Shown here: in pieces, positions 11,510 through 38,172 of the stretch | Layout: each line of letters begins with the position of its first letter | Numbering within the stretch: position 1 is the first letter of the stretch | NCBI GenBank assembly: GCA_017477425.1 | Contig: JAFUVT010000016.1 | Span: 62,001 to 126,000, forward strand | Length of the DNA: 64,000 nucleotides | From: Bacteroidales bacterium | GTDB lineage: Bacteria; Bacteroidota; Bacteroidia; Bacteroidales; F082 | Reading direction: 5' to 3' | Made by a program: the position numbers and the translations under genes | The notes under the pieces: generated by a model | What the model was told of the DNA's origin: nothing | Database searches by the model: none | Seen by the model: the letters and a program-made list of their open reading frames with translations, nothing else

Positions 11510-11530
11510 AGGCTATACTTTTTTCTGTCG

Positions 11531-18813: not shown

Positions 18814-18832
18814 CACTCAAATTCAACTCTTG

Positions 18833-20149
18833 ATGAATCTTTCAACCACTTTGATTCTGAGTATTGCCGTTTTCCTCGGCATTGTGCTGCTGCTCGTCGG
18901 CTTGCTGCTGTTTGTGCGCAACAAACTGATGCCCAATGGGAAAGAGAAGATTACCATCAACGGGGAGAAGGAGCTGGAGGTGCGGCCCGGCAACTCGCTG
19001 ATGGCCACTTTGGCCGAAGAAAAGGTGTTTCTGCCTTCGGCGTGCGGCGGCAAAGGCAACTGCGGCCAATGCAAATGCCGCGTGACGGAAGGCGGCGGCT
19101 CCATCTTGCCTACCGAAGTGGGATTTTTCAGCCGAAAGCAAATCCAAGAGCACTGGCGACTGGGTTGTCAGGTGAAGGTGAAAGAGGATATGAAAATCGT
19201 TGTGCCTCAGTCGATTCTGAGCATCAAGGAATATGAATGCACGGTGGTCAGCAACCGCAATGTGGCCACTTTCATCAAGGAGTTCAAGGTGCAGCTGCCC
19301 GCTGGCGAGCACATGGATTTCGTGCCAGGCAGTTACGCCCAAATCAAGATTCCGGCTTTCGACCTCCATTATTCCGATTTCGACAAGGAACTGATTGGCG
19401 CTGATTATCTTCCCGCTTGGGAGAAGTTCAAGATGTTTGACCTGCATTGCGTCAACACCGAGCCGACGGTGCGCGCCTATTCGATGGCCAACTATCCCGC
19501 TGAGGGCGATGTATTTATGCTCACCGTGCGTATCGCCACGCCGCCGTTCAAGCCCGACCGTTCGGGATTCATAAATGTCAACCCGGGCATTGCCTCATCG
19601 TATATTTTCTCGCTGAAACCTGGCGACAAGGTGCTGATGTCGGGGCCGTTTGGTGAATTCCATGTGAAGGAACATAACATAGCAATGGACGGCCCTTCGA
19701 CAGGCTCAGGGGCCTTACCCGAAATGATTTGGGTAGGTGGTGGTGCCGGCATGGCTCCTTTGCGCGCACAGATTATGCACCTGACGCGTACTTTGAACGT
19801 CCGCGACCGCGAGATGCACTATTTCTACGGTGCCCGCGCCTTGAATGAAGTCTTCTATCTCGATGATTTCCGCCAGCTGGAGCAGGACTTCCCCAACTTC
19901 CATTTCCATCTCGCTTTGGACCGTCCCGACCCTGCCGCCGATGCCGCTGGAGTGCCCTACACGGCTGGTTTTGTGCACAATGTGATGTACGACACCTATC
20001 TGAAGAACCATCCCGCGCCCGAGGACATCGAATATTATATGTGCGGCCCCGGCCCAATGAGCGCCGCCGTTGTCAATATGCTCGACAATTTGGGCGTGCC
20101 CGCTGAGAATATCCTGTATGATGATTTTGGCGGAGGAACGCCAAAGTGA
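18833..20149 (+). CDS. nqrF: Na+-NQR subunit F (NADH-oxidising), with one repeat-encoded insert
   Basis: The electron-entry subunit, 438 residues. It has an N-terminal membrane helix (STTLILSIAVFLGIVLLLVG), then a 2Fe-2S ferredoxin domain with the cluster motif CGGKGNCGQCKC near residue 73 and a further Cys in RLGCQVK. The FAD-binding part follows with RAYSMANYPAEG, then the NADH-binding part starting GGGAGMAPLRAQ and ending CGPGPMSAAVVNML. I use the ATG at 18833 (MNLSTT), not the TTG just before it. Residues 287-294 (GPSTGSGA) come from a 24-bp dispersed repeat at 19691-19714, inserted right before the conserved MIWVGGGAGM strand. The gene has its own promoter and is not contiguous with nqrE. 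Confidence 0.95.
   Translation: MNLSTTLILSIAVFLGIVLLLVGLLLFVRNKLMPNGKEKITINGEKELEVRPGNSLMATLAEEKVFLPSACGGKGNCGQCKCRVTEGGGSILPTEVGFFSRKQIQEHWRLGCQVKVKEDMKIVVPQSILSIKEYECTVVSNRNVATFIKEFKVQLPAGEHMDFVPGSYAQIKIPAFDLHYSDFDKELIGADYLPAWEKFKMFDLHCVNTEPTVRAYSMANYPAEGDVFMLTVRIATPPFKPDRSGFINVNPGIASSYIFSLKPGDKVLMSGPFGEFHVKEHNIAMDGPSTGSGALPEMIWVGGGAGMAPLRAQIMHLTRTLNVRDREMHYFYGARALNEVFYLDDFRQLEQDFPNFHFHLALDRPDPAADAAGVPYTAGFVHNVMYDTYLKNHPAPEDIEYYMCGPGPMSAAVVNMLDNLGVPAENILYDDFGGGTPK
19691..19714. repeat. CCTTCGACAGGCTCAG-family repeat inside nqrF
   Basis: A 24-bp copy whose outer ends (GGCC...GGCC) and core match the copies in frdA and ccsA. Being a multiple of three, it is translated in frame. Confidence 0.9.
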
Positions 20150-20160
20150 TGGGGCAATAA

Positions 20161-20646
20161 TCAATCCTCCGATGCAAACTTTTTCAAGGCCGCTTCGTCG
20201 AGCCGTTGCACTGTCCATTCATCCATAGGGATGGCCCCGATGCTGCGATAAACGGTCAAGGCGGGTTTGTTCCAGTCGAGGCAAATCCACTCCATGCGGC
20301 CGCAGTTGCGCTCCACGGCAAGCTTGGCCAAGTATTTCAGCAAAGCCTTGCCATAGCCGCGACCACGTTTCTCGGGAAGGATGAACAGGTCTTCAAGATA
20401 CAAGCCTTTGCGCCCGACGAAAGTGGAGAAATTGTGGAAAAACAAGGCAAAGCCGACAACGGCACCGTCTTCCTCGGCAAAGACCACCTCGGCGGAACGC
20501 TCCACAAACAAGGAATGATACAAGGTGGCTTCGTCGGCCACGACCTCATCGGCACATTTCTCGTAAACGGCGAGTTTCTTGATGAACTCAAGGACAAGTC
20601 CCGTCTCATCGAGCCTTGCGGGACGGATGGCGAATTGCGTGTTCAT
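20161..20646 (-). CDS. GNAT-family N-acetyltransferase
   Basis: A 161-residue acetyl-CoA-dependent acetyltransferase. The acetyl-CoA pyrophosphate loop is KRGRGYGKALLKYLAKLA (near residue 97), preceded by the strand YLEDLFILPE and followed by WICLDWNKPALTVYRSIGA. The overall pattern (GLYLEDLFI, DWN, ALTVYRSIGA) is that of the diamine/spermidine acetyltransferase subgroup, so polyamines are possible substrates, but this is not proven. It lies 5 nt after the peroxiredoxin gene on the same strand and is probably cotranscribed. Confidence 0.88.
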   Translation of the reverse strand: MNTQFAIRPARLDETGLVLEFIKKLAVYEKCADEVVADEATLYHSLFVERSAEVVFAEEDGAVVGFALFFHNFSTFVGRKGLYLEDLFILPEKRGRGYGKALLKYLAKLAVERNCGRMEWICLDWNKPALTVYRSIGAIPMDEWTVQRLDEAALKKFASED

Positions 20647-20651
20647 GGCAA

Positions 20652-21095
20652 CTACAATATCTGCGTCGTATGGTTCTTTGTATCTACTTTGCCGATGGCA
20701 TCAATGATAACACCCTCTTCGTCAATGACGTAGGTAGTGCGCAGTGTGCCTTCGGTCACTTTGCCGTACATCTTCTTCTCGCCCCAAGCCTCGTAGGCCT
20801 TCAGAATGGTCAAATCGGTGTCGGCAATGAGGTGGAAGGGCAGGTTGTATTTGGCGATGAAATTGAGGTGCGACTTGGCGCTGTCGCGACTGACACCCAG
20901 CACGTTATAACCCAAGGTGAGGAAACGCTCGTAGTTGTCGCGCAGGTCGCAAGCCTCGGCGGTGCAGCCCGGAGTGCTGTCCTTGGGATAGAAATAAAGC
21001 ACCAGTTTCTTTCCGGCAAAATCTGTCAGTTTGACGAGGTTGCCGTTCTCGTCTTGCCCTTCAAAGTAAGGGGCTTTTGTACCTTTTTGTAGCAT
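20652..21095 (-). CDS. bcp: Thioredoxin-dependent thiol peroxidase (Bcp/PrxQ)
   Basis: A 147-residue peroxiredoxin reducing H2O2 and organic hydroperoxides. The active site is FYPKDSTPGCTAEACDLRD near residue 40: the first Cys is peroxidatic, and the second, five residues later, is the resolving Cys of PrxQ. WGEKKMYGK and RTTYVIDEEG are also characteristic. It is cytoplasmic, with no signal peptide. It has its own -7 box (TAATTTTG, 21119-21126, minus strand). Confidence 0.95.
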   Translation of the reverse strand: MLQKGTKAPYFEGQDENGNLVKLTDFAGKKLVLYFYPKDSTPGCTAEACDLRDNYERFLTLGYNVLGVSRDSAKSHLNFIAKYNLPFHLIADTDLTILKAYEAWGEKKMYGKVTEGTLRTTYVIDEEGVIIDAIGKVDTKNHTTQIL

Positions 21096-21118
21096 GGTTT
21101 ATGATGTTTTGTTGAGCG

Positions 21119-21126
21119 CAAAATTA
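21119..21126 (-). promoter_or_regulatory. -7 promoter box of bcp
   Basis: TAATTTTG on the minus strand, 23 nt upstream of the bcp ATG. Confidence 0.55.
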
Positions 21127-21161
21127 CACAAATTGTCGTCAACTCAAACAAAAACAAATAA

Positions 21162-21193
21162 TTTGCCCATCAATCGAAAAACCCGTACTTTTG
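21162..21193 (+). promoter_or_regulatory. Promoter of the RhuM-like gene
   Basis: -33 TTTG (21162-21165) and -7 TACTTTTG (21186-21193), 20 bp apart, 20 nt upstream of the ATG at 21214. Confidence 0.75.
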
Positions 21194-21213
21194 CCAAAAA
21201 TTATCCGATTGAT

Positions 21214-22137
21214 ATGGATCAAAACGAAAACATAGTTCTTGCACCCGCTTCATTAGACAAAGGAGAAATCGTACTATATCAGCCCAACGACAACATTAAA
21301 CTTGAAGTAAGGTTTGATAAAGAAACGGTTTGGCTTACACAACAGCAGATTGCCGACTTGTTTGGCGTGAAACAACCCGCCATTTCAAAGCATATTGCAA
21401 ATATCTATAAATCAGGTGAATTAAAAGAAAGAAGCACATATTCCATTTTGGAATACATGGGCAATGATGGGAAACAATTGTACTCCACAAAAGTCTATAA
21501 TTTGGACATGATTCTTTCGGTGGGTTACAGAGTGAATAGTATTCATGCCACCCGATTCCGTCAGTGGGCAAACTCCATATTGAGGAAGTATCTTTTGGAA
21601 GGACACGTTGTCAATCAGCAACTGCTTGCCATCCAAAGGCAGATAGATTCTCGTTTTGAACGGCAAGATAGTCGCATGCTTTTGATAGAAGGCGAGTTGA
21701 AAGAACACCAAGAAAAGATTGACTTTTTCGTCCGTACCAATTTGCCACCAGTTGAGCAGGTGTTCTTCGACGGGGAATTTTTCGAGGCTCGTGTGTTAAT
21801 TGAAAAACTCATCAAAAGTGCACAACAAAGGGTCGTCGTCATAGACGCATACATTGATGCCGCCACTTTTGAAATGCTTGATGTACGTAACAAGGGTATT
21901 TCTGCCGATATTTATTCGGGCAAAGACTTGGCTGTATTAAGGGACGCTCATAACGCATCGGCAAATGTCGAATCAATAGAAACGCATTTGTGGTCAAAGC
22001 CATCACACGACCGCTGGTTGATTATTGACGATTCCTTGTACCATTGTGGACATTCACTCAAAGACATGGGACGTAAGCTCTCTGCCATCACATTGATGGG
22101 AACTTCGCCTGAAACGATACTTGGACAAATAAGATAA
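21214..22137 (+). CDS. RhuM-family protein with PLD-like C-terminal domain
   Basis: A 307-residue protein. Residues 15-130 are the RhuM/Fic-accessory-type DNA-binding region: VWLTQQQIADLFGVKQPAIS, then HIANIYKSGELKERSTYS, then VYNLDMILSVGYRVNSIHAT and RFRQWANSILRKYL. Residues 205-300 look like half of a phospholipase D-like domain, with HDRWLIIDDSLYHCGHSLKD (H-x-R/K...D). The start follows the promoter at 21162-21193. RhuM genes are often found beside type I restriction genes and in mobile regions, and the next gene has an HsdR-type nuclease domain, so a role in defence is plausible but unproven. Composition is more AT-rich than the flanking genes. Confidence 0.85.
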   Translation: MDQNENIVLAPASLDKGEIVLYQPNDNIKLEVRFDKETVWLTQQQIADLFGVKQPAISKHIANIYKSGELKERSTYSILEYMGNDGKQLYSTKVYNLDMILSVGYRVNSIHATRFRQWANSILRKYLLEGHVVNQQLLAIQRQIDSRFERQDSRMLLIEGELKEHQEKIDFFVRTNLPPVEQVFFDGEFFEARVLIEKLIKSAQQRVVVIDAYIDAATFEMLDVRNKGISADIYSGKDLAVLRDAHNASANVESIETHLWSKPSHDRWLIIDDSLYHCGHSLKDMGRKLSAITLMGTSPETILGQIR

Positions 22138-22235
22138 TGGGGCATTTACACCATCTCTTTAGCTTCTTTCAACTATAAAGCGTATAAAAAATGCTCGATT
22201 CCAAACACAAAAAAGGTGTGCTTTTGTTTTTTGTT

Positions 22236-22243
22236 TATTTTTG
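22236..22243 (+). promoter_or_regulatory. -7 promoter box of the HsdR_N/DUF4357 gene
   Basis: TATTTTTG, 24 nt upstream of the ATG at 22268. Confidence 0.6.
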
Positions 22244-22267
22244 CAGCAAACAAAACCGCATCTGAAT

Positions 22268-23728
22268 ATGGAAGAATGGAACAAATTCGTTTATGATTTA
22301 ATCGAAGCAAAAAAAAAGAACGTTGAAGAGGACAAATACCACGCTTTAATTGAAAGCCAGCTTCAATTGCTTGGATGGGCAAAATACAAAGGTGAGATTT
22401 GTCACAAACCAAATATCCCAATTGGCAACAGAGATCATATTCAGCCCGACATCCTAATAAAAGACAACGAGGAAAACCTATTTGTCATAGAAGTTAAACG
22501 CCCTGTCCACACACAAACTGAAAGAGAAAGATTGCAACTTGAATCATATATGAGGCAACTAAAAGTTGAAGTTGGAATTTATGTTGGTGAAAACATAGAA
22601 ATCTTTTATGATGCTCCCAAGGAAAAATCCGCTGCTTCAATATTGAAAGTTCCTCTTAAATTGGACGACAAAATGGGTGCTAAATTCGTGGAAAAGTTTT
22701 CCAAAGAGAGTTTTAGCAGAGACGCCATCGTAAAATTTTGCGAAGATCGCATCAAGGAAATGCAACATTTGGAGAACTTGAACAAGATAAAAGAAAGTAT
22801 TCTTTCAGATTCTCAAAATGTGATTCTAGAAAGTTTAAAGCGTACTTTAGTTGAAAAATACAATGGCATTTTTTCTGAGGAAGATATCCAAGGAATGCTT
22901 ACTTCATTAAGGTTTTCCGTTGCTCCTATTGACCCATCAGATGCTTCTGCATCGACATCAACAGCTATTCCCTCGACTACAAGCACAAATAATACAGGTG
23001 AGGTAACCCAAAAAAGAATGTATGATAATACAACATATTCATTAAACGGAGGCTCTTTCCTAAAAAAGAAACACTTTGTTTATGCTGTTGTATCGGAATA
23101 TGTAAAACAGCATCCAACAAAAACCTATATAGAATTAGAATCAATCTTTCAACCTGAATTGCAAGGTTCTTTTGGAGTTATACAAACAATGCAATTCCTT
23201 CGTGAAAAAAAATACCAAGGGAAGCGTTATTTTGACGAGGAAGATGAAATTCTTCGAAGTGGGGACAACATTCCGTTTGCAGTATGCACACAATGGGGGA
23301 AGGACAATGTCCAAAACATTGTAAAACTATCAAAAGAATTAGGATTTCATGTAGAAATTTCTTGTACAACTTCCAATGCAGGAGTTACCACCACTAACAA
23401 CACTAATAACGCAAACGCGGTTTCTTGTTCATTAACACGCAATGCAAACGCAAAAGGCATCTTTTATATCCATGACCATTCTTTAATTGTCTTAAAGGGA
23501 AGTAGAATTAACCCTATTACTTTGCCAAAAGTTACGGATTCATTTCGTCAAAAAAGAGACCAACAACTATCAGCTTACACCGAAGTAATTAATGGAGAAT
23601 GCTTTGTAAAAGAAGATGTTCTTTTTGAATCTCCAAGTGGAGCTTCTCAGTTTTGTGTTGGAAGCAATTCCAATGGTTGGGCAGAATGGAAGGACGAAAA
23701 GGGCAACGCATTAGCGATTTACAGATAA
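22268..23728 (+). CDS. HsdR_N-type nuclease-domain protein with C-terminal DUF4357
   Basis: A 486-residue cytoplasmic protein. Residues 1-130 match the type I restriction R-subunit N-terminal nuclease domain; the PD-(D/E)xK core is visible as QPDILIKDNEENLFVIEVKR, then QLESYMRQL. A helical region follows, then a Ser/Thr-rich linker (SASTSTAIPSTTSTNN). A middle domain of unknown kind has a second Asn/Thr-rich stretch. The C-terminus reads LFESPSGASQFCVGSNSNGW followed by EWKDEKG, which is DUF4357. It has no helicase motor, so it is not a full HsdR. The start ATG 22268 follows the box at 22236. The AT-rich composition and low-complexity linkers set it apart from its neighbours and suggest transfer. 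A stand-alone defence nuclease is one possibility. Confidence 0.82.
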   Translation: MEEWNKFVYDLIEAKKKNVEEDKYHALIESQLQLLGWAKYKGEICHKPNIPIGNRDHIQPDILIKDNEENLFVIEVKRPVHTQTERERLQLESYMRQLKVEVGIYVGENIEIFYDAPKEKSAASILKVPLKLDDKMGAKFVEKFSKESFSRDAIVKFCEDRIKEMQHLENLNKIKESILSDSQNVILESLKRTLVEKYNGIFSEEDIQGMLTSLRFSVAPIDPSDASASTSTAIPSTTSTNNTGEVTQKRMYDNTTYSLNGGSFLKKKHFVYAVVSEYVKQHPTKTYIELESIFQPELQGSFGVIQTMQFLREKKYQGKRYFDEEDEILRSGDNIPFAVCTQWGKDNVQNIVKLSKELGFHVEISCTTSNAGVTTTNNTNNANAVSCSLTRNANAKGIFYIHDHSLIVLKGSRINPITLPKVTDSFRQKRDQQLSAYTEVINGECFVKEDVLFESPSGASQFCVGSNSNGWAEWKDEKGNALAIYR

Positions 23729-23791
23729 TCCTGTTGTCATCATGAAAACGTTTGTTTTTCAAATCATTTATTTCGCTCAAATCATTTCATT

Positions 23792-24598
23792 ATGAATCTC
23801 CCAAAAATCCACTCCATCTCAAAGAAAATCCTCGTGGGGGCGTTAGGTGCCTTCCTGAGTTTCTTCCTGCTGTTCCACGCCAGCGCCAACTTGCTCATTC
23901 TGAGGCATGACGGCGGCGAATGGTACAATGCTTTTTGCCACTTCATGGGCACCTACGTCATCGTCAAGGTGCTTGAAGTGGGGCTGTTTGGGGCTTTGCT
24001 GCTCCATGCGGTTTTGGCACTTTGGCTGGCCATCACGAACAGGATGGCGCGCCCCGTGGGCTACAAAAAGCCCTCGCGGACCAAGACCCACAAAGGCTCG
24101 AAAATCCAAATGTGGACAGGCATCCTATTATTGGCGTGTCTCATCCTTCACTTCACGGACTTCTATTTCGTGAAAATCGGCTGGGTGAAAGGCAAATACA
24201 TGGCCAAGACGGAAGAGGTCGTTGCCCTGAAAACGACCCAACCCGATGCCGTCAGCTATGCCGAGCAACACGGCGAATACTCTGCCAAAGGCAACTGGCT
24301 CACCAACTTCGACAAAGACGACAAGGCCGTTCTCGAAGCCGCTGGCCTCAAAGTGGAGCCAGACTTCTACCACCAAGCACGCGAGAAGTTCAAGATCTTG
24401 CACATCGTCATTTCCTACCTCGTGTTTTTCACGGTGGTTTGGTTCCATCTGCGCCACGGCTTCCCCGCCATCTTCCAGACCTTCGGGCTGTACAACTACA
24501 AATACGGCAAGGCCATCGAAATCCTCGGACAGGTTTTCACTTGGGTGGTCTGCCTGATGTTCACCGTCGTGGTTCTGGGCGTTTATTTTGGACTGTAA
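23792..24598 (+). CDS. sdhC: Succinate dehydrogenase/fumarate reductase cytochrome b subunit
   Basis: The membrane anchor of the quinone-linked complex, 268 residues, with five hydrophobic helices as in the diheme (type B) enzymes. His residues suited as heme ligands lie in the helices: FLLFHASANLLIL (near 29), YNAFCHFMGTYVIVK (near 49), LILHFTDFY (near 115), ILHIVISYLVFF (near 200) and WFHLRHGFPA (near 215). It starts a three-gene operon with the flavoprotein (12 nt gap) and the iron-sulfur subunit. In anaerobic Bacteroidales the complex mainly works as fumarate reductase. Confidence 0.93.
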   Translation: MNLPKIHSISKKILVGALGAFLSFFLLFHASANLLILRHDGGEWYNAFCHFMGTYVIVKVLEVGLFGALLLHAVLALWLAITNRMARPVGYKKPSRTKTHKGSKIQMWTGILLLACLILHFTDFYFVKIGWVKGKYMAKTEEVVALKTTQPDAVSYAEQHGEYSAKGNWLTNFDKDDKAVLEAAGLKVEPDFYHQAREKFKILHIVISYLVFFTVVWFHLRHGFPAIFQTFGLYNYKYGKAIEILGQVFTWVVCLMFTVVVLGVYFGL

Positions 24599-24610
24599 AC
24601 ACTGATTGTC

Positions 24611-26572
24611 ATGAACTTAGACTCTAAAATACCCTCTGGTCCACTCGCCGAAAAGTGGACGAATTACAAGGCTTCGCAGAAGTTGGTCAACCCGGCCAAC
24701 AAGCGCAAACTCGACATCATCGTGGTGGGCACGGGCTTGGCTGGTGCCTCGGCTGCTGCTTCGTTGGGCGCCTTGGGCTTCAATGTGGACATCTTCTGCA
24801 TCCAGGACTCGCCACGTCGCGCCCACAGCATCGCCGCGCAAGGTGGCATCAACGCGGCCAAGAACTACCAAAACGACGGCGACAGCGTGGAACGCCTCTT
24901 CCGCGACACCATCAAGGGCGGCGACTATCGCGCCCGCGAGGCCAATGTGTATCGCTTGGCGGAGGTCAGCGGTGCCATCATTGACCAATGCGTGGCGCAA
25001 GGCGTGCCTTTCGCCCGCGACTATGGCGGGCTGCTCGACAACCGTTCCTTCGGTGGGGCGCAGGTCAGCCGCACCTTTTACGCCAAGGGCCAGACGGGAC
25101 AACAACTGCTGCTTGGCGCCTATGGTGCCTTGAGCCGCGAGATTGCCCGAGGCACGGTGAAGCTGCATACACGCTGCGAGATGATGGACTTGGTCGTGGT
25201 GGAAGGCCGCGCCCGTGGCATCATCGTCCGCAACCTCGTCACCGGCGACTTGGAGCGTTATGCCGCTCACGCCGTGGTATTGGCCACGGGCGGCTACGGC
25301 AATGTTTATTACCTCTCCACCAACGCGATGAACAGCAACGGCAGCGCAGCGTGGGTGTGCCACCGCAAAGGTGCCGCCTTCGCCAATCCTTGCTATGTGC
25401 AGATCCACCCGACTTGCATCCCCGTCCACGGCGACTATCAATCCAAGCTGACCTTGATGAGCGAGAGCCTTCGCAACGACGGTCGCATCTGGGTGCCCAA
25501 AAAGAAAGAGGATGCCGAAGCCATCCGCGCAGGAAAATTGAGAGCCAACGACATCCCCGAGGGAGACCGCGACTATTACTTGGAGCGCCGTTATCCCGCC
25601 TTCGGCAACCTCGTTCCTCGCGATGTGGCCAGCCGTGCTGCCAAGGAACGCTGCGACGCGGGCTATGGCGTGGGCACGGGTTATGCCGTCTATCTCGACT
25701 TCGCCGACGCGATCAGAAGATTGGGAAAAGATGTGGTGGAACAGAAATACGGCAACCTCTTCCAGATGTACCAGAAAATCACCGACGAGAACCCTTACGA
25801 GACCCCGATGATGATCTACCCCGCCATCCACTACACCATGGGCGGCCTCTGGGTGGACTACGAACTGCAGACCACCATTCCGGGCTTGTTTGCCGCCGGC
25901 GAAGCCAACTTCAGCGACCACGGCGCCAACCGCCTCGGGGCCTCCGCCTTGATGCAAGGATTGGCGGACGGTTATTTCGTCCTGCCCTACACGATGCAAA
26001 ACTACCTCGCCGACCAGATCTATGTGGGCAAAATCTCATCTTCAACACCTGAATTTGATGCTGCTGAGGCGGCGGTGCGACAGAGAATTGAAAAGTTGTT
26101 TAATAACACGGCCCTTCGACAGGCTCAGGGACCTTCACATACGAAAACCGTCGATTATTTCCACAAACGATTGGGTAAAATCATGTGGGAATACTGCGGC
26201 ATGGCCCGCAACACCGAAAGCCTGACCAAGGCAAAACAGTTGGTCGCTGACCTCGAAAACGAGTTCTGGAAGGAGGCTTTCGTCCCTGGAACTGCCAACG
26301 AGTTCAACCCCGAGCTGGAAAAGGCCTATCGTCTGGAGGATTATTTCGAATTGGCACAACTGATTATCGACGATGCGATGCACCGCGAGGAGTCGTGCGG
26401 CGGACATTTCCGCACCGAGCACCAGACCGACGACGGCGAGACCTTGCGCGACGACGAACACTTTATGTACGTCGCCGCGTGGGAATACCACGGTCACGGC
26501 CAGGCCGAGACGATGGAGAAGGAACCGCTGGTTTATGAACATATTCAAATCGCAAAACGGAATTACAAATAA
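24611..26572 (+). CDS. frdA: Fumarate reductase/succinate dehydrogenase flavoprotein subunit, with one repeat-encoded insert
   Basis: A 653-residue catalytic subunit with covalent FAD. The dinucleotide fold is [20 protein letters not shown] (near 35), and the FAD-linked His is in [15 protein letters not shown] (near 75). The dicarboxylate-site residues include [10 protein letters not shown] (near 276), [20 protein letters not shown] (near 412) and [16 protein letters not shown] (near 436). The C-terminal helical domain includes [10 protein letters not shown]. Residues about 501-508 (LRQAQGPS) are encoded by a dispersed 24-bp repeat at 26110-26133, in a surface linker before the C-terminal domain. 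It is four bases upstream of the iron-sulfur gene. Confidence 0.95.
26110..26133. repeat. CCTTCGACAGGCTCAG-family repeat inside frdA
   Basis: A 24-bp copy read in frame 2 relative to the nqrF copy: here it yields LRQAQGPS, in nqrF and ccsA GPSTGSG. Confidence 0.9.
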
Positions 26573-26575
26573 GCT

Positions 26576-27334
26576 ATGAACTTCAAACTCCATATCTGGC
26601 GACAAGAAAACGCCCGCGCCAAGGGCCATTTCGAGACCTATCCCATAGAAGGCATCTCGGCCGACTGCTCCTTCCTTGAGATGCTCGACATCCTCAACGA
26701 ACAGCTCATCAACGACCACATCGCCCATCCCGTTTGTTTCGACAACGACTGCCGCGAGGGCATCTGCGGTATGTGCGGACTTTATATCAACGGCCGTCCC
26801 CACGGCAACGACGACGGCATCACCACCTGCCAACTGCACATGCGCAAGTTCCGCGACGGCGACGACATCTGGATTGAGCCTTGGCGCGCCAAAGCCTTCC
26901 CCGTCATCCGCGACCTCGTGGTGGACCGTTCCGCTTTCGACAAGATTATTCAGGCGGGAGGCTACATCAGCACCACCACGGGCGGCGTCCCCGATGCCAA
27001 CACCATCCCCATTCCGAAGCATAAAGCCGATATGGCTATGGATGCTGCGGCATGCATCGGTTGTGGCGCGTGCGTGGCCGCCTGCAAAAACGCCAGCGCG
27101 ATGTTGTTCGTCGGAGCCAAGGTCAGCCATTTGGCGTTGTTGCCGCAAGGCCAAATCGAAGCCGCCGACCGTGTGAAGAAGATGGTCTGCAAGATGGACG
27201 AGCTGGGCTTTGGCAGCTGCACCAACACCTACGCCTGCGAAGCCGAATGCCCCAAACTCATCAAACGGCAGAATATCTCACGGCTTAACCGTCAATGGAT
27301 TGGAGCGTTGTTTGGCCGCGACAGAAAGGAATAA
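26576..27334 (+). CDS. frdB: Fumarate reductase/succinate dehydrogenase iron-sulfur subunit
   Basis: A 252-residue electron-transfer subunit linking FrdA to the membrane quinone site. The [2Fe-2S] motif is [19 protein letters not shown] (near residue 54) with the fourth Cys in TTCQLHMR. The second ferredoxin-like cluster set is [12 protein letters not shown] (near 159) and [13 protein letters not shown] (near 215), giving ligands for the [4Fe-4S] and [3Fe-4S] centres. It starts 3 nt after the frdA stop and is the last gene of the operon. Confidence 0.96.
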
Positions 27335-27352
27335 TACACTATTTTCCATCAT

Positions 27353-27386: not shown

Positions 27387-27392
27387 CACGCA

Positions 27393-29507: not shown

Positions 29508-29910
29508 AATACTTTCTATTTTTGAGTTTGATGCTGCAAAGATGAAAAGGATGTCAAGACAAAGCCGTTGATTAAACGTTTGTTGTCGACAGTAGTCGTT
29601 TGTTGTCGTTTGCTGTCGGATATATTATTGATTTTCAAAATAATCTAATTTAAACAAAACAACCAGGGCAATCATCACACACAAAAAATAATGAATAAAA
29701 AGCCCGAAAATCCCAAAATGTGGGGATTTCACAGGTCGCGAAATGGCTGTTATTTTGCATCCAGATTTTTGTCATACTGTTAGAATGAATTTTTGAGTTA
29801 GTTTTTATGTGCATAACGGGAGCGGACGATGCTCCGCTCCCAATATCACGACAGTAAGGCAAGACCACACCAACGCCGAAAACCGATTATTAACCAAATC
29901 CTTCCCAATC
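29508..29910. other. 403-bp intergenic region between comM and the di-heme gene
   Basis: AT-rich. It holds a doubled GTTTGTTGTCG motif (29578-29606), a copy of the 12-mer TTTGAGTTAGTT (29792-29803) and a 9-bp hairpin (29818-29841). I found no clear TAnnTTTG box for the downstream gene and no gene within it. Confidence 0.6.
29818..29841 (+). terminator. Hairpin upstream of the di-heme oxidase gene
   Basis: GGGAGCGGA / TCCGCTCCC with loop CGATGC. No T-run follows, so it is either an untranslated-leader hairpin or a weak terminator. It is preceded by the same 12-mer as the hairpin at 31503. Confidence 0.45.
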
Positions 29911-31476: not shown

Positions 31477-31502
31477 AAATGAGATTTTGAGTTAGTTGTA
31501 TT

Positions 31503-31539
31503 GTTCGAGGCGAATCATGGTTCGCCTCGAACGGTTTTT
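31503..31539 (+). terminator. Terminator after di-heme oxidase copy 1
   Basis: A 12-bp stem (GTTCGAGGCGAA / TTCGCCTCGAAC), loop TCATGG, followed by GGTTTTT. Confidence 0.85.
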
Positions 31540-31652
31540 AGGCATCCTCATTTGTGACGAAACGCCTTTCCAAAAATAGCCATTTATGGGGATTTGGATT
31601 CAGAGGCAAAAATCGGACTTTTGCAGGCGAATTTGAATAAATAGCATTCATC

Positions 31653-32966
31653 ATGAAATTGAGAACAATAGCAAAATGCGCTGTTTTGGGCCTGGCCTTA
31701 AGTGCCCTGCCATTGCATGCGCAGAACAACAACGCGGATTCGACGAAGTTTTTCTCGCTTTCGCGTCTCACCGTGGGCGGCTATGGCGAAGCCGTCTACA
31801 CGCGTAATTTTTACAGCGACAACATGTTCCGCTATTCCCATGCCGACCGCTACAAAGATGCCAAAGGCCACGGTCGCATCGATTTGCCCCACGTGGTCAT
31901 CAACTTGGGCTACGACTTCGGCAAAGGCTGGACGATGGGCAGCGAAATCGAGTTTGAGCATGGCGGCAGCGAAGTGGCCGTCGAGGTGGAAGCCGAGGAA
32001 ACCGGCGAATTCGAGCACGAAATCGAACGCGGCGGCGAGGTCGCCTTGGAACAATTCTGGATCCAGAAGTCGTTCGGCAAGGGTTTCAACATCCGCATGG
32101 GTCACATCATCGTGCCCGTCGGGCAGACCAACTTCGCCCACGAGCCTAACCGCTTCTTCACCTGCTACCGCCCCGAAGGCGAGTTCTACATGATGCCTTG
32201 CACCTGGCACGAAACGGGCATCAGCCTGTGGGGACGCCTCGGCGGCTGGCGTTATGAGGCCATGGTGATTCCTGCCCTTAACTCCAACATGTTCAACAAC
32301 GCCAACTGGGTGAAAAACGGCTCAGCCTCGGGTTATGAATTCCGCGTGGCCAACCATTTGGCTGGTGCGGCCCGCATCGACAACTACAGCATCAAGAACC
32401 TGCACATCGGGGTGAGCGGCTATGTCGGCAACACCTTTAATAATGACATCGTCACCACCGAATTCAGCGAGACGAGCCAATACAAGGACGTGAAAGGCAC
32501 GGTGGTCATCGGCACGGCCGAATTCGACTACAAGGCCAACGGTCTCGTGGTTCGCGGCAACTTCGACTACGGTCACCTCAGCGACGCCAACCTCATTTCG
32601 TCATGGAACAAGAACCAAAATCACCAAAGCTTCTCGCCCTATCCGCGCTCGCTCGTCGGAGAGGCTGCCATTGCCTACGGCGGCGAGATTGCCTACGACA
32701 TCATGCACCCGATGAAGCACACCAGTGATAGAAAGCTCTATCTCTTTGGTCGTTACGACTACTACGACACTTACATCCCTACCGCCAACGCCCTCACCGA
32801 CTACCAGTGGACCGACCGCCACGTGATGACCCTCGGTGTGAATTATTATCCCATCAAGCAGGTCGTCATCAAGGCCGAATACGCCAAGCGATTCCTGAAG
32901 GAGCAATACAACGACGAACCGATGTTTTCGCTTGGCGTGATGTACAGCGGATTTTTCACGAAATAA
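31653..32966 (+). CDS. Outer-membrane porin-like beta-barrel protein
   Basis: 437 residues with a signal peptide (VLGLALSALPLHAQ). The mature part begins with SRLTVGGYGEAVYTRNFYSD and consists of alternating amphipathic strands (YDFGKGWTMGSEIEFEHGGS, FWIQKSFGKGFNIRMGHIIV, GVSGYVGNTFNND). The C-terminal strand ends in FFTK, with GVMYSGFF as the likely last membrane strand. I take it as a porin of the phosphate-selective-porin-like type seen in Bacteroidota. The substrate is unknown; its position between di-heme oxidase 1 and the imelysin suggests passage of an iron or heme species. Confidence 0.8.
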   Translation: MKLRTIAKCAVLGLALSALPLHAQNNNADSTKFFSLSRLTVGGYGEAVYTRNFYSDNMFRYSHADRYKDAKGHGRIDLPHVVINLGYDFGKGWTMGSEIEFEHGGSEVAVEVEAEETGEFEHEIERGGEVALEQFWIQKSFGKGFNIRMGHIIVPVGQTNFAHEPNRFFTCYRPEGEFYMMPCTWHETGISLWGRLGGWRYEAMVIPALNSNMFNNANWVKNGSASGYEFRVANHLAGAARIDNYSIKNLHIGVSGYVGNTFNNDIVTTEFSETSQYKDVKGTVVIGTAEFDYKANGLVVRGNFDYGHLSDANLISSWNKNQNHQSFSPYPRSLVGEAAIAYGGEIAYDIMHPMKHTSDRKLYLFGRYDYYDTYIPTANALTDYQWTDRHVMTLGVNYYPIKQVVIKAEYAKRFLKEQYNDEPMFSLGVMYSGFFTK

Positions 32967-32970
32967 AAAT

Positions 32971-32998
32971 GTAAAGACGCAAAATTTTGTGTCTCTAC
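32971..32998. repeat. GTAGAGACG-family palindrome, diverged
   Basis: GTAAAGACGCAAAATTTTGT plus GTCTCTAC, a 28-bp imperfect palindrome between the porin and imelysin genes, possibly attenuating transcription. Confidence 0.7.
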
Positions 32999-33042
32999 AA
33001 ACAAGACAACGATTAACAATTAACCAATAAAAAATCAGAAAA

Positions 33043-34212
33043 ATGAAGAAATTATTCAGAAACGCAATGCTGGTCGCAGCATCAGCCCTGCTTGCAGTGA
33101 GCGTCAGCTCGTGCAACAAACCCAACGAAACCACCGACGAAGCCAACAAGGAAACCAAAGAAGCCATCGTCAAGCAGTACCTCAACCACACGGTTTATCC
33201 GACCTACACCAACCTGGCCAACGAAACCGACAAGTTGGTTGAATGCCTTGAAAGCCTGAAGGCCAACATGACCCAGAACAACGTCAACGACGCCACCGTC
33301 ACCTTCCTCGAAGCCCGTCACTGGTGGGAAATGAGCGAAGCCTTCCTCTTTGGCGCCGCCAACGATTTCGGCATCGACCCGCACATCGACTCTTGGCCGC
33401 TTGATGAAGACGCTTTCAACAACCTGATGGCCAGTCCCAGCATGATTGCTACCCTTGCCAACGACGAAGACGGCACAGTGGCCGGTGAGCAACTCGGCAA
33501 CGCCCTGCTTGGATTCCACGGCATCGAGTACATCCTCTTCCGTGACGGCCAGCCCCGCAACGTGGACGAGCTGAACGACGACATGATTACCTACATCGTG
33601 GCCGTGGCCCGCGACCTGCGCAACCGCTGCTTCCAACTCGAAGTGAGCTGGAATCCGGAAGCCGCCCAAGCCCACAAGGACCTGATGGAAGAACTGGAAT
33701 TCAACACCACCGTCATCGGCAGCGACAACACTTACGGCGACAACATGACCCTCGCTGGTCAGGCCGGCAGCACATACGCCACCTTCACCAACGCTCTTGA
33801 AGCCATCGCCGACGGCTGCATCGACATCGCCGACGAAGTGGGTACCTCAAAAATCGGCAAATGCCACACTGGCGAGGACGTGACCTACGTTGAGTCGCCC
33901 TACAGCCAGAAATCCATCAGGGACTTCTACGACAACATCACGAGCATCAAGAACGCCTACATGGGCGGCCTTGAAGGCCAAAGAGACGAGACCATTTCGG
34001 TGCACACCTACATCAAGGACAACAATGCCGAACTCGACACCAAGGCCGTCAACGCCATCGAAAACGCCCTCACCGCCATCAACAACATGAAGGCCCCCTT
34101 CGTTCAGTACTACATGGACGCCAGCGCTGGCAAAGCCATGGAAGCCTGCCAAGACCTCTCCGATGTAATGGCCGAAGTGAAGGCCGAGTTTGCCAAGATT
34201 GACAACAAATAA
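33043..34212 (+). CDS. Imelysin-family lipoprotein
   Basis: 389 residues with a signal peptide and lipobox (LAVSVSSCNKP). The imelysin motif GxHxxE is present as LLGFHGIEYILF (near residue 155), together with the helical-bundle features LEARHWWEMSEAFLFGAAND and IDSWPLDEDAF. Imelysin-like proteins bind or handle iron in the periplasm and are not proteases despite the M75 name. Gene order is porin, imelysin, second di-heme oxidase, with only 31 nt before the latter, so it is almost certainly cotranscribed with it. Confidence 0.92.
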   Translation: MKKLFRNAMLVAASALLAVSVSSCNKPNETTDEANKETKEAIVKQYLNHTVYPTYTNLANETDKLVECLESLKANMTQNNVNDATVTFLEARHWWEMSEAFLFGAANDFGIDPHIDSWPLDEDAFNNLMASPSMIATLANDEDGTVAGEQLGNALLGFHGIEYILFRDGQPRNVDELNDDMITYIVAVARDLRNRCFQLEVSWNPEAAQAHKDLMEELEFNTTVIGSDNTYGDNMTLAGQAGSTYATFTNALEAIADGCIDIADEVGTSKIGKCHTGEDVTYVESPYSQKSIRDFYDNITSIKNAYMGGLEGQRDETISVHTYIKDNNAELDTKAVNAIENALTAINNMKAPFVQYYMDASAGKAMEACQDLSDVMAEVKAEFAKIDNK

Positions 34213-34243
34213 TCGACGAATCCAATAACTAACTCAAATCAAT

Positions 34244-35845
34244 ATGTTTAATCACAAGACATTAAGAATGTTGATTGCGGGAAGTGTGATGGCTTTGGCC
34301 ATCACTTCCTGCAATCCGCATGAGCCCATTCCAACCGAAGTCAGCGAGGACACCTATGCTGGCGGCGAATTGGGCACCACTTTCAACCGATCGCAGTCGG
34401 CCTACGAAGACCCCACCCCTGCCACCGAGCAGGCTGGACTGGGCACCGCCTTCAAGTATGGCGAGTACTTCTTTGAGCGTACATACACGCAGAACAACCC
34501 GCCCTTCAATGGCTTAGGGCCGCTCTACATCCGCAGCAGCTGCATCGCCTGCCATCCTGGCTATGGCCACGGCATGCGCATGAACCGCTACCGCGCCGAC
34601 GACTGGGGCAATGGTTACCTGCTCGTCTTCACCGACAAGAACGACACCTACTTGAGCAGCTACACGGGCATGCCGCAAACCAAGGCTGTCGCACCTTTCA
34701 AGGCACCTTTGGACGAGACCCAAATCCAAATCAACTGGCTGAGCTATACCGACGAATGGGGCAACCAATTCCCCGACGGCGAGCGCTACAACCTCACCTA
34801 TCCCGAGGTCTACATCCCCGAGGAGGCTTTCTATGTGCCGCTTGAGGTGAACAACCAACCCATTCCTTACAGTGACTTCGTGTGCCGTCTGGAATCGACC
34901 ATCGGCATCTATGGCACTGGCTTGATTGACGCCATTCCAGACGACTCTCTGAGAGCGCAATACCAAAAGGAGTACAATGACGGCTACATGCAAAACGGCC
35001 TCAACCCCGCCATGTGGGCTGGCTCCGACTTCGCCCCGACGGGTTACTATGGCAACACCAACCACCCCAAGAAGTACACCTACGCCCTCACTCGTGGTCC
35101 TTTGCAAGATGCTCCTGGCGCCAACGCCATCTGGAACATCACCAACGTGACGCACCGCACCAAGACCGGTCACTACATGACCGCCGCCTACGCCACCAAG
35201 GCTTCACAAGACCCCGACGTGCAAGCCGAGTTCTACAACTACTTCCCGCAATTCAACCTGACGGGCAATGTGGAGACCGACATCTACAACTACCTGATGA
35301 TGAACGACCAGATCCCCGACGAGCTGAAAGTGCCCGAAATGTCGGACGAGGACTACGTCAACTTCATGGTGTGGCACCGTGGTTTGGCTGTGCCTGCCGC
35401 TCGCAACTTGGACGACCCCGAGGTGCAACGCGGCAAGCAACTCTTCAGCGACTTGGGTTGCGCCTACTGCCACCGTCCGTCGTGGCAAACGGGTGACGAC
35501 ATGTTCACCGACCCGGCTGGTTTCTTCGCCGATGGTGACCCGCGTCTGCCCCGCTATCCCAACCAGAAGATTTGGCCCTATAGCGACTACATCCAGCACA
35601 AGCTCCACATGGAGAACGACATCCGCACGGGCTGGTGCCGCACCACCCCGCTTTGGGGCCGTGGCCTGAGCGCCATCTGCACCGGAGCCAGCGAGCGCCT
35701 GCACGACTGCCGCGCCCAAACCGTCATCGAAGCCATCATGTGGCACGGCAACGCCCAAAGCGATGCCCGCCGCTCGGTGGAGAAGTTCCGCGAGCTGCCT
35801 AAGGCCGACCGCGACGCCGTCGTGAGATTCATCGACGCTATTTGA
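34244..35845 (+). CDS. Di-heme oxidase-like lipoprotein (DUF1111), copy 2
   Basis: 533 residues with a lipobox near residue 25 (ALAITSCNP). The heme motifs are SSCIACHPGYGHG (near 105) and DLGCAYCHRPSW (near 405). It is closely similar to copy 1 along its length (shared TYAGGELGTTFN, EDPTPA, YGEYFFER, NDIRTGWCRTTPLWG and IMWHGNAQSDAR). The differences lie in the middle, where this copy has GFFADGDPRLPRYPNQK. It follows the imelysin gene by 31 nt. The covalent heme needs System II maturation, which the next gene (ccsA) provides. Confidence 0.92.
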   Translation: MFNHKTLRMLIAGSVMALAITSCNPHEPIPTEVSEDTYAGGELGTTFNRSQSAYEDPTPATEQAGLGTAFKYGEYFFERTYTQNNPPFNGLGPLYIRSSCIACHPGYGHGMRMNRYRADDWGNGYLLVFTDKNDTYLSSYTGMPQTKAVAPFKAPLDETQIQINWLSYTDEWGNQFPDGERYNLTYPEVYIPEEAFYVPLEVNNQPIPYSDFVCRLESTIGIYGTGLIDAIPDDSLRAQYQKEYNDGYMQNGLNPAMWAGSDFAPTGYYGNTNHPKKYTYALTRGPLQDAPGANAIWNITNVTHRTKTGHYMTAAYATKASQDPDVQAEFYNYFPQFNLTGNVETDIYNYLMMNDQIPDELKVPEMSDEDYVNFMVWHRGLAVPAARNLDDPEVQRGKQLFSDLGCAYCHRPSWQTGDDMFTDPAGFFADGDPRLPRYPNQKIWPYSDYIQHKLHMENDIRTGWCRTTPLWGRGLSAICTGASERLHDCRAQTVIEAIMWHGNAQSDARRSVEKFRELPKADRDAVVRFIDAI

Positions 35846-35860
35846 TTTTTATTACACTTT

Positions 35861-35895
35861 GTAGAGACGTGCCATAGCGCGTCTCTACTTTTTTT
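35861..35895 (+). terminator. GTAGAGACG palindrome acting as terminator
   Basis: A 28-bp repeat (35861-35888) with stem GTAGAGACG / CGTCTCTAC, directly followed by a T-run, after di-heme oxidase copy 2. It is a member of the dispersed family at 54119 and 57305. Confidence 0.8.
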
Positions 35896-35903
35896 TATCT
35901 TTG
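35896..35903 (+). promoter_or_regulatory. -7 promoter box of ccsA
   Basis: TATCTTTG, 19 nt before the ATG, starting inside the T-run of the terminator. Confidence 0.65.
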
Positions 35904-35922
35904 CACAAAATCCATCCTCACT

Positions 35923-38172
35923 ATGAAAAACTTTCGCTACTTCACCCCTATCCTGATGATACTTATCATCATCGCGCTTGCTGCTGGAACGGTCATCGAA
36001 AAACTACACGGCTCCGACTTCGCCTTGAGTCACGTCTACAGCTCTTGGTGGTTTATCGCCCTCTGGACCATGTTTGGCGTCGTGGCTGCCGTCTACACTT
36101 TCAGCGACCGCAACTGGAAACGTCCTATGGCGCTCACTTTGTTTTTGGCTGTAGCATGCATCCTTATCGGTGCTTTGCTTACCATGCTCACTGGACAACA
36201 CGGTGAAATCACCTTGAAACCTGAGATGGCCAACAGCCAATTCACCGTTGAGAAACACGGCAACACCAAAGAATGTGCGCTACCCTTCAGTCTCACCCTC
36301 GACCGCTTCGAAATCGAGACCTATCCAGGCACACGCTCGCCCATGGATTTCGTCAGCTATCTCCAAATCAATGACGAAGGCACCACAACGGAAACCAAAA
36401 TATCCATGAACAACATCTTGAAACACAAGGGCTACCGCTTCTATCAGAGCGACTACGACGACGAGGGCAATTCCGTCCTCAGTGTCGCCCACGACCCTTG
36501 GGGCATCGGCGTAACCTATGCGGGCTACATCCTGCTTCTGCTGGCCGTCATTTTTGCCTTCACGGAAAAAAACGGCGAGTTCCGCAGCTTGTTGAGAAAG
36601 GCTTCTGGAAAAATCGCCATTTTGCTGGTTCTGTTTACTTTCAGCATCGCCAATAGCATGTACGCATCTGGTCCTTCGACAGGCTCAGGAACCAGAAAGC
36701 CTCGCACCTTGCCTAAGGAAAGCGCCAACAAAATGGGGCAAATGTACGTGATGTACAAAGGCCGCGTGTGTCCCTTGCAAACCTTGGCCAAGGACTTCAC
36801 CACCAAACTCAGCGGCAATGCGCGCTATCAAGGCCTTACGCCAGAACAAGTCTTCAGCGGCTGGATTTTCTACTACGACGACTGGAAAGATGAACCTATG
36901 ATGAAAATCAAAGGAGGATATGTGCAAAAGCAATTGGGCATTGAAGGCAAATACGCCAAAATGACCGATTTTGAGGACGCCAAAGGCGAGAACAAGCTCT
37001 CCGACACGATAAAATCGCTGCCGATGGGCGACCCGAAACGCAAGAAATACAGCGCTGCCGATGAGAAATACCAACTCATCACCATGCTCAACAACGGCAA
37101 ACTGCTGAAGATTTTCCCCCATGCCGACAGCACGCAAAACGTCAGCTGGTACTCGCAAAGCGACAATCTTCCCCTCGACATTCCCGAGGACGAATACCTC
37201 TTCATCCGCAAACAGCTCAGCCTTTGCCAGGAATATGTGGTGAAAAAGGACTTCAAGGCATTGAACGAGGTTTTTGAGAAAACAAAAATCTACCAGGAGA
37301 AGAATGCCATTAGCGGTCTTCCCTCCTCTGCCCAATATGGCTCTGAACGGCTCTACAACCGCCTCAGCACGGGCAAGTGGTTGGCTATGGTCAGCATCAC
37401 TTTGGGTTTGGTTTGCTTTGCCCTTTCTATGGTTTGCATGGGCAAAAAGAAGCCGCTCTACAAACCCGTCCGCATCGTCGGAATGATTTGGATGATTGGA
37501 CTTTGCGCTTTCCTCGCCCTGTTGTTCGTCTTACGTTGGATTGCAGGGGGACATGTCCCGATGGCAGGTGGCTTCGACTCAATGAACCTGATGGCCTTGG
37601 CCATCTGCATCATCACGCTCTGCACGGTGCGGAAATACGAAATGGCCCTGCCCGCCGGCCTGCTGACGAGCGGTTTCGTGCTTCTCGTACAAATGATGGG
37701 CGGCGCCAATCCCCCTGTCACGCATCTGATGCCCGTGCTGTCTTCGCCTTTGCTCAGCTTGCACGTGACGGTCATCATGATTGCCTACGCCCTGCTGTTC
37801 TTCGTCATGCTCAACGGCATCAGTGCCGTCGTCGTACGTCTTACCCAACCCAGCAACGTCACCTACCTCGAAAGGCTCCAAACCATCAGCCGCATCATGC
37901 TTTATCCTGCCGTGGCTTTGTTGGCTGCCGGTATCTTCATCGGCGCCGTTTGGGCCAACATCTCGTGGGGCAATTATTGGTCGTGGGACCCGAAGGAAGT
38001 TTGGGCGCTCATCACGCTGTTGGTTTACGCTATGCCGCTGTTCCATAATGTGATGACTTCGTTCCACAAACCGATGTTTTTCCACGTCTATAGCATCATC
38101 GCCTTCCTAAGCGTCATCATCACTTATTTTGGAGTGAATTTGATTTTGGGTGGAATTCACGCATACAATTGA
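35923..38172 (+). CDS. ccsA: Fused ResB-CcsA cytochrome c maturation (System II) protein, with one repeat-encoded insert
   Basis: 749 residues. The N-terminal ResB-like part has helices ILMILIIIALAAGTVIE, SSWWFIALWTMFGVVAAVY and AGYILLLLAVIFAF, with a periplasmic domain between. A second periplasmic domain spans about 265-480. The CcsA part (from about 490) carries the heme-handling WWD motif WGNYWSWDPKEVWALITLLV (near 685), with membrane His residues in FHNVMTSFH and LSLHVTVIM. The protein exports heme and attaches it to CxxCH apocytochromes. Residues 250-257 (GPSTGSGT) are encoded by a dispersed repeat at 36670-36693, just after the fourth helix. It follows the two di-heme oxidase genes, its likely clients. 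Confidence 0.93.
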   Translation: MKNFRYFTPILMILIIIALAAGTVIEKLHGSDFALSHVYSSWWFIALWTMFGVVAAVYTFSDRNWKRPMALTLFLAVACILIGALLTMLTGQHGEITLKPEMANSQFTVEKHGNTKECALPFSLTLDRFEIETYPGTRSPMDFVSYLQINDEGTTTETKISMNNILKHKGYRFYQSDYDDEGNSVLSVAHDPWGIGVTYAGYILLLLAVIFAFTEKNGEFRSLLRKASGKIAILLVLFTFSIANSMYASGPSTGSGTRKPRTLPKESANKMGQMYVMYKGRVCPLQTLAKDFTTKLSGNARYQGLTPEQVFSGWIFYYDDWKDEPMMKIKGGYVQKQLGIEGKYAKMTDFEDAKGENKLSDTIKSLPMGDPKRKKYSAADEKYQLITMLNNGKLLKIFPHADSTQNVSWYSQSDNLPLDIPEDEYLFIRKQLSLCQEYVVKKDFKALNEVFEKTKIYQEKNAISGLPSSAQYGSERLYNRLSTGKWLAMVSITLGLVCFALSMVCMGKKKPLYKPVRIVGMIWMIGLCAFLALLFVLRWIAGGHVPMAGGFDSMNLMALAICIITLCTVRKYEMALPAGLLTSGFVLLVQMMGGANPPVTHLMPVLSSPLLSLHVTVIMIAYALLFFVMLNGISAVVVRLTQPSNVTYLERLQTISRIMLYPAVALLAAGIFIGAVWANISWGNYWSWDPKEVWALITLLVYAMPLFHNVMTSFHKPMFFHVYSIIAFLSVIITYFGVNLILGGIHAYN
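36670..36693. repeat. CCTTCGACAGGCTCAG-family repeat inside ccsA
   Basis: A 24-bp copy, in frame, coding GPSTGSGT at the periplasmic side of a membrane helix. Confidence 0.9.

What the first reader, a model, noticed from the sequence alone, without database searches (positions are those of the whole stretch)
19691..36693. A 24-bp dispersed repeat is read in frame inside three conserved respiratory and cytochrome enzymes
The core CCTTCGACAGGCTCAG occurs at 19691 (nqrF), 26110 (frdA) and 36670 (ccsA), and inverted at 8169 (a T9SS gene), always flanked by short complementary ends (GGCC or GGTCC). Intergenic copies come as inverted pairs (11531/11576 and 51561/51599). The coding copies are 24 bp long, so they keep the frame, and are translated in two different frames (GPSTGSG and LRQAQGPS). 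They fall at linkers or surface positions next to conserved motifs. This looks like a mobile or spreading element tolerated in proteins, comparable in concept to Rickettsia palindromic elements but a different sequence family. No transposase is present here.
Basis: partly seen in the sequence, partly recalled or inferred. Interest (0 to 1): 0.82.

Follow-up and report, generated by a model that had tools for sequence, protein, structure and literature searches.

The report
Mobile DNA hairpin inside bacterial enzymes
A 24-base DNA hairpin found about 150 times in this bacterium, and up to hundreds of times in unrelated bacteria, lies in reading frame inside genes for core enzymes, where it likely spreads as a mobile repeat and would be translated into short protein linkers.

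Summary
The core occurs 149 times exactly in the 2.98 Mb host genome (reversed control 0). It is a REP-type imperfect hairpin: a conserved TTCGACARGCTCA head and three outer base pairs that covary. In a sample of 127 members, 44 score as in frame inside genes, including polA, valS, murB, murD and B12 ribonucleotide reductase, with very uneven frame use. Orthologues show the residues are extra: the nqrF, frdA and polA sites are hypervariable linkers where relatives carry the same repeat, its reverse, nested copies or unrelated repeats. Two near-identical polA sites (2 differences in 84 nt) differ by a clean 24-nt unit without target duplication, at the hairpin tip of an older copy; tip nesting recurs in other lineages. 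The core is dispersed in many phyla (up to 517 copies). No RAYT read adjoins it, and 7 of 26 copy-carrying genomes gave no Y1 transposase match. It works like an intragenic REP or Rickettsia palindromic element, but I found its sequence in no held paper text, and no enzyme. Translation and the insertion mechanism remain untested.

The parts
19691..19714 (+). 24-bp element in nqrF, read GPSTGSGA
26110..26133 (+). 24-bp element in frdA, read ALRQAQGP
36670..36693 (+). 24-bp element in the CcsB/CcsA-like gene, read GPSTGSGT
8165..8188 (-). element with broken stem in a T9SS-secreted protein gene, about 10 residues before the sorting domain, read GLSTGSAT
11530..11555 (+). left half of an intergenic inverted pair
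   Evidence: the pair folds at -19.7 kcal/mol as DNA, z -5.38
11576..11599 (-). right half of the same pair
51561..51584 (-). left half of a second inverted pair outside scored coding sequence
   Evidence: pair z -3.42
51599..51622 (+). right half of the second pair
18830..20149 (+). nqrF, host gene; linker between HVKE and EMIWVGGG is hypervariable in relatives
24611..26572 (+). frdA, host gene; repeat site is hypervariable in relatives
35923..38172 (+). CcsB/CcsA-like cytochrome c biogenesis gene, host gene
7943..8971 (-). T9SS C-terminal sorting domain protein, host gene

Best explanation
This is a dispersed, REP-type DNA hairpin of about 24 bp that likely spreads as a non-autonomous mobile element and is tolerated in frame at linkers of core proteins. 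Shown: a conserved head TTCGACARGCTCA with covarying outer stem; 149 exact copies in this genome and up to hundreds in unrelated phyla; copies in frame in core genes; a clean 24-nt presence/absence difference at a polA site without target-site duplication; and nesting at the tip of older copies in net steps of mostly 15 or 24 nt. Inferred: the unit moves as a single-stranded hairpin, joined at a hairpin tip or in plain DNA by an enzyme acting in trans that is not a linked RAYT. Because the usual steps are multiples of three and five of six frames of the consensus are open, many insertions would keep the frame, and selection would retain those in exposed linkers in the mildest frames (GPSTGSG, PEPVEG). 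Predicted, untested: the peptides are translated and mostly neutral.
For:: 149 exact copies, reversed control 0; 118 of 127 members have the exact head, 9 have one change; three outer positions paired in 0.97/0.98/0.97 of 120 G000 copies against 0.69/0.60/0.58 if independent; in 194 copies from the pattern-scan genome loci 0.98/0.96/0.82 against 0.85/0.61/0.37; 44 of 127 sampled members coding, frames 23/13/7/1/0 over the five open frames (chi-square 41, p 3e-8); nqrF, frdA and polA sites are insert-free in some relatives and filled with different repeats in others; the 84-nt polA site of G000 differs at 2 positions from that of G024 once G024's 24 nt at GAC^AG are set aside; an nqrF site of G024 is also 24 nt longer than in G018 and G021; tip nesting in G000, genus, other-genome and viral loci, net +15 (6), +24 (5), +20 (1) of 12 with at least two outer pairs; 15 of 120 NqrF and 12 of 120 FrdA homologues nested by 5 or 8 residues; cross-phylum spread without a linked RAYT.
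Against: No movement was observed and no enzyme was found. A single copy folds no better than shuffles as DNA (z -0.54, 0.18, 0.32); only pairs do. Copy number correlates with Y1_Tnp count in the genus (rho 0.53) and all 26 of 60 genus genomes with 20 or more copies have a Y1_Tnp, so a RAYT role there is not excluded. A clean 24-nt difference could in principle be an excision, and G057 lacks the polA copy that G018 and G047 share with G000, so copies are also lost or replaced. One of 12 nested copies is +20. Seven of the 12 nested FrdA rows are one peptide, probably one lineage. Coding calls rest on a codon-usage score, not annotation.
Confidence: 0.62

Rival explanations
1. It is an ordinary RAYT-mobilised REP whose Y1 transposase acts in trans from an unlinked gene in this genus.
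For: Insertion without target duplication fits Y1/HUH chemistry (established knowledge); all 26 of 60 genus genomes with 20 or more copies carry PF01797 against 16 of 34 with fewer; inverted pairs as in BIMEs (80 of 127 members).
Against: Neither Y1_Tnp of G000 has the element within 1.5 kb at up to 2 mismatches; the repeats beside them are different sequences. In 40 further genus RAYT loci there was one exact copy, 1.3 kb away, and a few mismatched or remote hits. 4 of 30 RAYT loci from copy-carrying genomes hold the motif, none closer than about 1 kb (four of the 30, two of them with hits, repeat genus loci). Plantibacter (517 copies), Sphingomonas (283), Eremiobacterota (157), Microbacterium (150) and three more of 26 genomes gave no PF01797 match. 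8 of 15 zero-copy genus genomes have Y1_Tnp.
Confidence: 0.2
2. Copies arise and grow by replication template switching at palindromes, with no transposase: hairpin-tip nesting is arm duplication, and ectopic copies are templated repair patches.
For: The +15 nested form equals a duplication of both arms; the nested copies found split at or within two bases of the tip (tandem arrays set aside); Y1 transposases are not required across phyla.
Against: The +24 units in polA and nqrF of G024 carry a tail and a changed internal sequence compared with the outer copy, so they are not copies of the local arms; copies at unrelated loci with a constant head need a template-specific step.
Confidence: 0.14
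3. The peptide is the selected unit: GPSTGSG and similar are functional flexible linkers that proteins acquire.
For: Strong frame preference; five T9SS proteins carry the copy 10-15 residues before the sorting domain.
Against: The same DNA is read in four frames on both strands, most sampled members are outside scored coding sequence (83 of 127), the stem covaries at DNA level (coding and non-coding copies pooled), and unrelated repeats stand at the same sites in relatives.
Confidence: 0.04

Closest known systems
Rickettsia palindromic elements (RPE)
   Same: Dispersed palindromic repeat found in frame inside genes of likely functional proteins (as told in PMC3733652, read in part)
   Different: RPE-4 and RPE-6 are filed there under CGTC REPs; here no CGTC end in G000, the same core occurs in many phyla and nests in its own tip. 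RPE sequences were not compared
CGTC-tagged REPs (Di Nocera 2013, PMC3733652)
   Same: Short stem-loops, mostly dimers, some intragenic, no dedicated transposase found
   Different: No CGTC end in 112 G000 copies; reported stems begin with A:T pairs and loops are 4-5 nt, here an imperfect stem with a covarying base and a conserved 13-nt head. Consensus figures of that paper were not held
GTAG REPs / REPINs with RAYTs (PMC2817692, PMC3116915; search listing only)
   Same: Imperfect hairpins, inverted pairs, of the order of 100 copies per genome
   Different: No GTAG end (0 of 112) and no adjacent RAYT in the loci read
IS insertion into REPs (PMC1525189; search listing only)
   Same: REP hairpins serve as insertion targets
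   Different: Here the insert is another small hairpin of the same kind, at the tip

Membership tests
REP/BIME (general kind) | 20-40 bp imperfect palindrome in high copy, often in inverted pairs | tested here: met
   (80 of 127 members in opposite-strand pairs within 70 bp)
RAYT-associated GTAG REP / REPIN | GTAG-type end | tested here: not met
   0 of 112 G000 copies; 2 of 190 in the pattern-scan genomes
RAYT-associated GTAG REP / REPIN | RAYT gene flanked by the repeat | tested here: not met
   not seen in the 42 genus and 30 further loci read (four overlap)
CGTC REP superfamily | unpaired CGTC at one end | tested here: not met
   0 of 112 in G000; 18 of 190 in other genomes, so some foreign subgroups may qualify
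CGTC REP superfamily | no dedicated transposase | tested here: met
   for Y1 transposases only
Rickettsia palindromic elements | in frame inside ORFs of conserved proteins | tested here: met
Rickettsia palindromic elements | RPE sequence homology | not tested
   no RPE sequence was compared
MITE | target-site duplication | tested here: not met
   none at the clean polA site (one site)
MITE | terminal inverted repeats of a known transposon | not tested
   only Y1_Tnp genes were examined
DNA uptake sequence | arises by substitution without added length | tested here: not met
   length is added

The most novel reading that the evidence does not exclude
One 13-nt hairpin head has spread through many bacterial phyla without a RAYT, moving as a single-stranded unit that joins the tips of its own older copies in steps of 15 and 24 nt. 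Because those steps are whole codons, it acts as a general builder of interdomain linkers, and a conserved enzyme not yet known moves it.
Probability: 0.3. Interest if true: 0.87.

Novelty: new variant of a known kind. Interest (0 to 1): 0.68.

Why it matters
It makes a long-open question testable: how REP-like repeats without a RAYT spread. The tip-nesting signature and the clean 24-nt polA pair give a precise target and product for assays, and genomes with 150-517 copies and no Y1_Tnp match (Plantibacter, Sphingomonas, Microbacterium) give places to look for the enzyme. It also shows repeats building, replacing and reversing linkers in polA, nqrF and frdA across one genus, a source of protein length variation that alignments usually treat as noise.

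Tried and rejected
RAYT as mobiliser: the two G000 Y1_Tnp genes, 40 genus RAYT loci and 30 loci from copy-carrying genomes (four of them the same genus loci again) were read; none has the element adjacent. A RAYT HMM made from 42 genus sequences found one weak hit among 238 pattern-scan loci, 5.9 kb from the motif; that HMM may miss classical RAYTs. AlphaFold of NqrF with 24 near-identical sequences failed (mean pLDDT 39) and is not used; alignments to solved structures put the insert opposite a gap, without a structural look. Rfam gives no family for it (two tRNAs in the window; only chance-level hits in three foreign loci). The CTCTCAA tandem search has an uninformative control because the reversed pattern lies in the same array. 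Literature: 14-mers (0 papers), 12-13-mers (10 papers, by title unrelated to repeats), encoded peptides (2, by title unrelated), palindromic elements and intragenic repeats, RAYT/REP, RPE, insertion into REPs. Figures and supplements were not searchable, so a consensus printed only there would be missed. PMC3733652 was read in parts 1-3 of 8 and by passages; PMC12306157 by passages; all others only as search listings.
Full report
Observation. The core CCTTCGACAGGCTCAG is in the window at the reported places, about 3 bases on from the reported unit starts: 11 hits with up to 3 mismatches against 0.65 expected, of which eight are the reported copies. In the whole assembly (G000, 2.98 Mb, 39 contigs) CTTCGACARGCTCAG occurs 149 times exactly (72 forward, 77 reverse) and the reversed control 0 times. 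The answer listed 100 places, the window's contig not among them; I fetched 89 of these 100, and with six exact copies in the window I hold 95 of 149.

Anatomy. In 120 copies the unit reads cGGcCCTTCGACARGCTCAGGgACCtt. In that profile the head TTCGACARGCTCA was fixed by the search pattern. In the looser set (up to 2 mismatches in 15), 134 hits were found and 127 kept as members (7 dropped for head or stem, the 8170 copy among them); 118 of the 127 have the exact head and 9 one change, so it is conserved, not invariant. The three outer positions on each side covary: pairs in 0.97, 0.98 and 0.97 of 120 copies against 0.69, 0.60 and 0.58 expected if independent, through C-G, G-C and T-A (the first of the three was limited to C/T and A/G by the pattern). 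In 194 copies from the pattern-scan genome loci, some of them Bacteroidales kin, the same positions pair in 0.98, 0.96 and 0.82 (0.85, 0.61, 0.37 expected). So the stem matters more than its letters. Against this, a single copy as DNA folds no better than shuffles (z -0.54, 0.18, 0.32), while the two window pairs do (z -5.38, -3.42). 80 of the 127 members lie in opposite-strand pairs within 70 bp.

Coding copies. By codon-usage scoring, 44 of 127 are inside genes, 29 single and 15 in pairs. Frames, element strand against gene: GPSTGSG 23, reverse PEPVEG 13, ALRQAQG 7, PFDRLR 1, reverse SLSLSKG 0; the sixth frame of the consensus holds a stop. The five open frames are used very unevenly (chi-square 41, p 3e-8; members of pairs are not independent). 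Hosts include DNA polymerase I, valyl-tRNA synthetase, MurB, MurD (a whole inverted pair plus a single copy), B12 ribonucleotide reductase, a methylmalonyl-CoA mutase subunit and prolyl oligopeptidase (20 host frames were scanned, and four of them, all, gave no Pfam match). Five T9SS proteins, the window's 8170 gene among them, carry a copy 10-15 residues before the sorting domain.

Orthologues. FrdA was matched in 47, NqrF in 44, the CcsA-like protein in 43 (many partial) and Pol I in 57 of 60 genus genomes, G000 included. I aligned G000 with 29 FrdA, 29 NqrF, 5 CcsA-like and 29 Pol I loci of relatives. At the NqrF site 10 of the 29 relatives have 7-8 residues where G000 has 20. Others have the same element (G049), its reverse (G057, the closest relative searched, FrdA 98% identical), or other repeats such as CTCAACTCT arrays, GGGACGCGGGAC or an ACAGCCCTACA unit. 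FrdA behaves alike. The 5 CcsA-like relatives lack the element's residues there; the two that could be measured cleanly are 8 residues shorter. In Pol I the element is shared with G018 and G047, nested in G024, and absent from G057 and others, so loss or replacement also occurs. Among 120 NqrF homologues of 85-91% identity, 53 fall in the GPSTGSG class by pattern, 10 LRQAQG, 2 PEPVEG, 9 CTCAACTCT, 10 GGGACGC and 36 other; among 120 FrdA, 48 LRQAQG, 26 no insert, 12 GTAGAGACG-type, 10 CTCAACTCT, 2 PFD, 22 other. The classes are regular expressions of mine; 'other' includes diverged, nested and some insert-free rows. I read these sites as repeat-turnover linkers.

Clean unit. In polA, G024 carries GGCCCTTCGAC, then 24 nt, then AGGCTCAGGGACC; with the 24 nt set aside, its 84-nt site matches G000 at 82 positions and G018 at 78. 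No bases are lost or duplicated. In nqrF G024 is again 24 nt longer than G018 and G021 at the tip. Letting the split vary (outer halves of at least 4 bases, three outer pairs), 17 candidates came up: 3 are tandem arrays, 11 split at TTCGAC or one base on, 3 one or two bases earlier. With the split fixed at TTCGAC and at least two outer pairs the net gain is +15 in 6, +24 in 5 and +20 in 1 of 12: two in G000, one in the genus, four in pattern-scan genomes (one of them Litorilinea, Chloroflexota by my knowledge; two Bacteroidales; one whose title was not shown) and five in viral contigs. In proteins the steps are 5 or 8 residues (15 of 120 NqrF, 12 of 120 FrdA; seven of the FrdA rows share one peptide).

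Distribution. Of 100 genomes (G000 and relatives), 55 have the 15-mer; in the genus counts of relatives run from 0 to 121, and 10 of 40 other families of the order have any. In 50 of these genomes, chosen because they hold it, counts run from 2 to 517, reversed controls 0-1. Two of the 50 coincide in RAYT coordinates with genus members and bear the names 'uncultured Bacteroidales bacterium RUG382' and 'bacterium F082', so the host is inferred to be a close Bacteroidales.

Mobiliser. PF01797 occurs in 73 of 100 genomes, G000 included. Neither G000 gene, and no genus or foreign RAYT locus read, has the element adjacent; the G000 genes sit beside other repeats. Seven of 26 copy-carrying genomes (38 to 517 copies) gave no PF01797 match; at least Plantibacter and Microbacterium mangrovi among them are named as isolates, while completeness was not told. 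Against this, copies correlate with PF01797 count in the genus (rho 0.53), as they do with genome size (0.58) and with an unrelated palindrome family (0.50). Other enzyme classes were not tested.

Interpretation. The element works like an intragenic REP or RPE. It fails the GTAG, CGTC and RAYT-flanking tests in this genome. The insertion signature (no duplication, hairpin tip) is what a single-strand joining enzyme would leave; that enzyme is inferred, not found.

Noticed in passing
window 8098-8125, 32971-32998, 35861-35888, 54119-54146, 57305-57332: A second dispersed palindrome family, GTAGAGACG-N10-CGTCTCTAC, usually with a self-complementary centre; 55 exact matches in G000 and present in 57 of 60 genus genomes (two of the five window hits are exact). 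The 8098 copy lies in the same T9SS gene as the 8170 element.
   Followed up: partly
L048/L481 (polA), downstream of the element: A GTCATTGCGAGG-type repeat lies in frame beside the element in polA and reads SLRGTKQSRETA; relatives carry other sequences there.
   Followed up: partly
L041 and L042: The two Y1 transposase genes of G000 sit beside their own, different repeats; one repeat beside L042 runs into that gene's last codons.
   Followed up: partly
L398, L411, L429, L432 and other relatives' frdA and nqrF linkers: Short tandem arrays such as CTCTCAA or CTCTCAC encode much of the linker (STLNSQLSTLNS and the like) at the same sites.
   Followed up: partly
L442, L486 (G024): A subfamily with a changed head, CCTTCGAGRGGCCTCAGGGACCGY, sits at the tip of the standard element in two genes of one genome.
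   Followed up: no
window 6374-6389: A three-mismatch match to the core inside a long ORF has some flanking complementarity but reads as ordinary codons; the same 15-mer CATCGACAAGCTCAT turned up in two relatives' RAYT loci. Not counted as a member.
   Followed up: no
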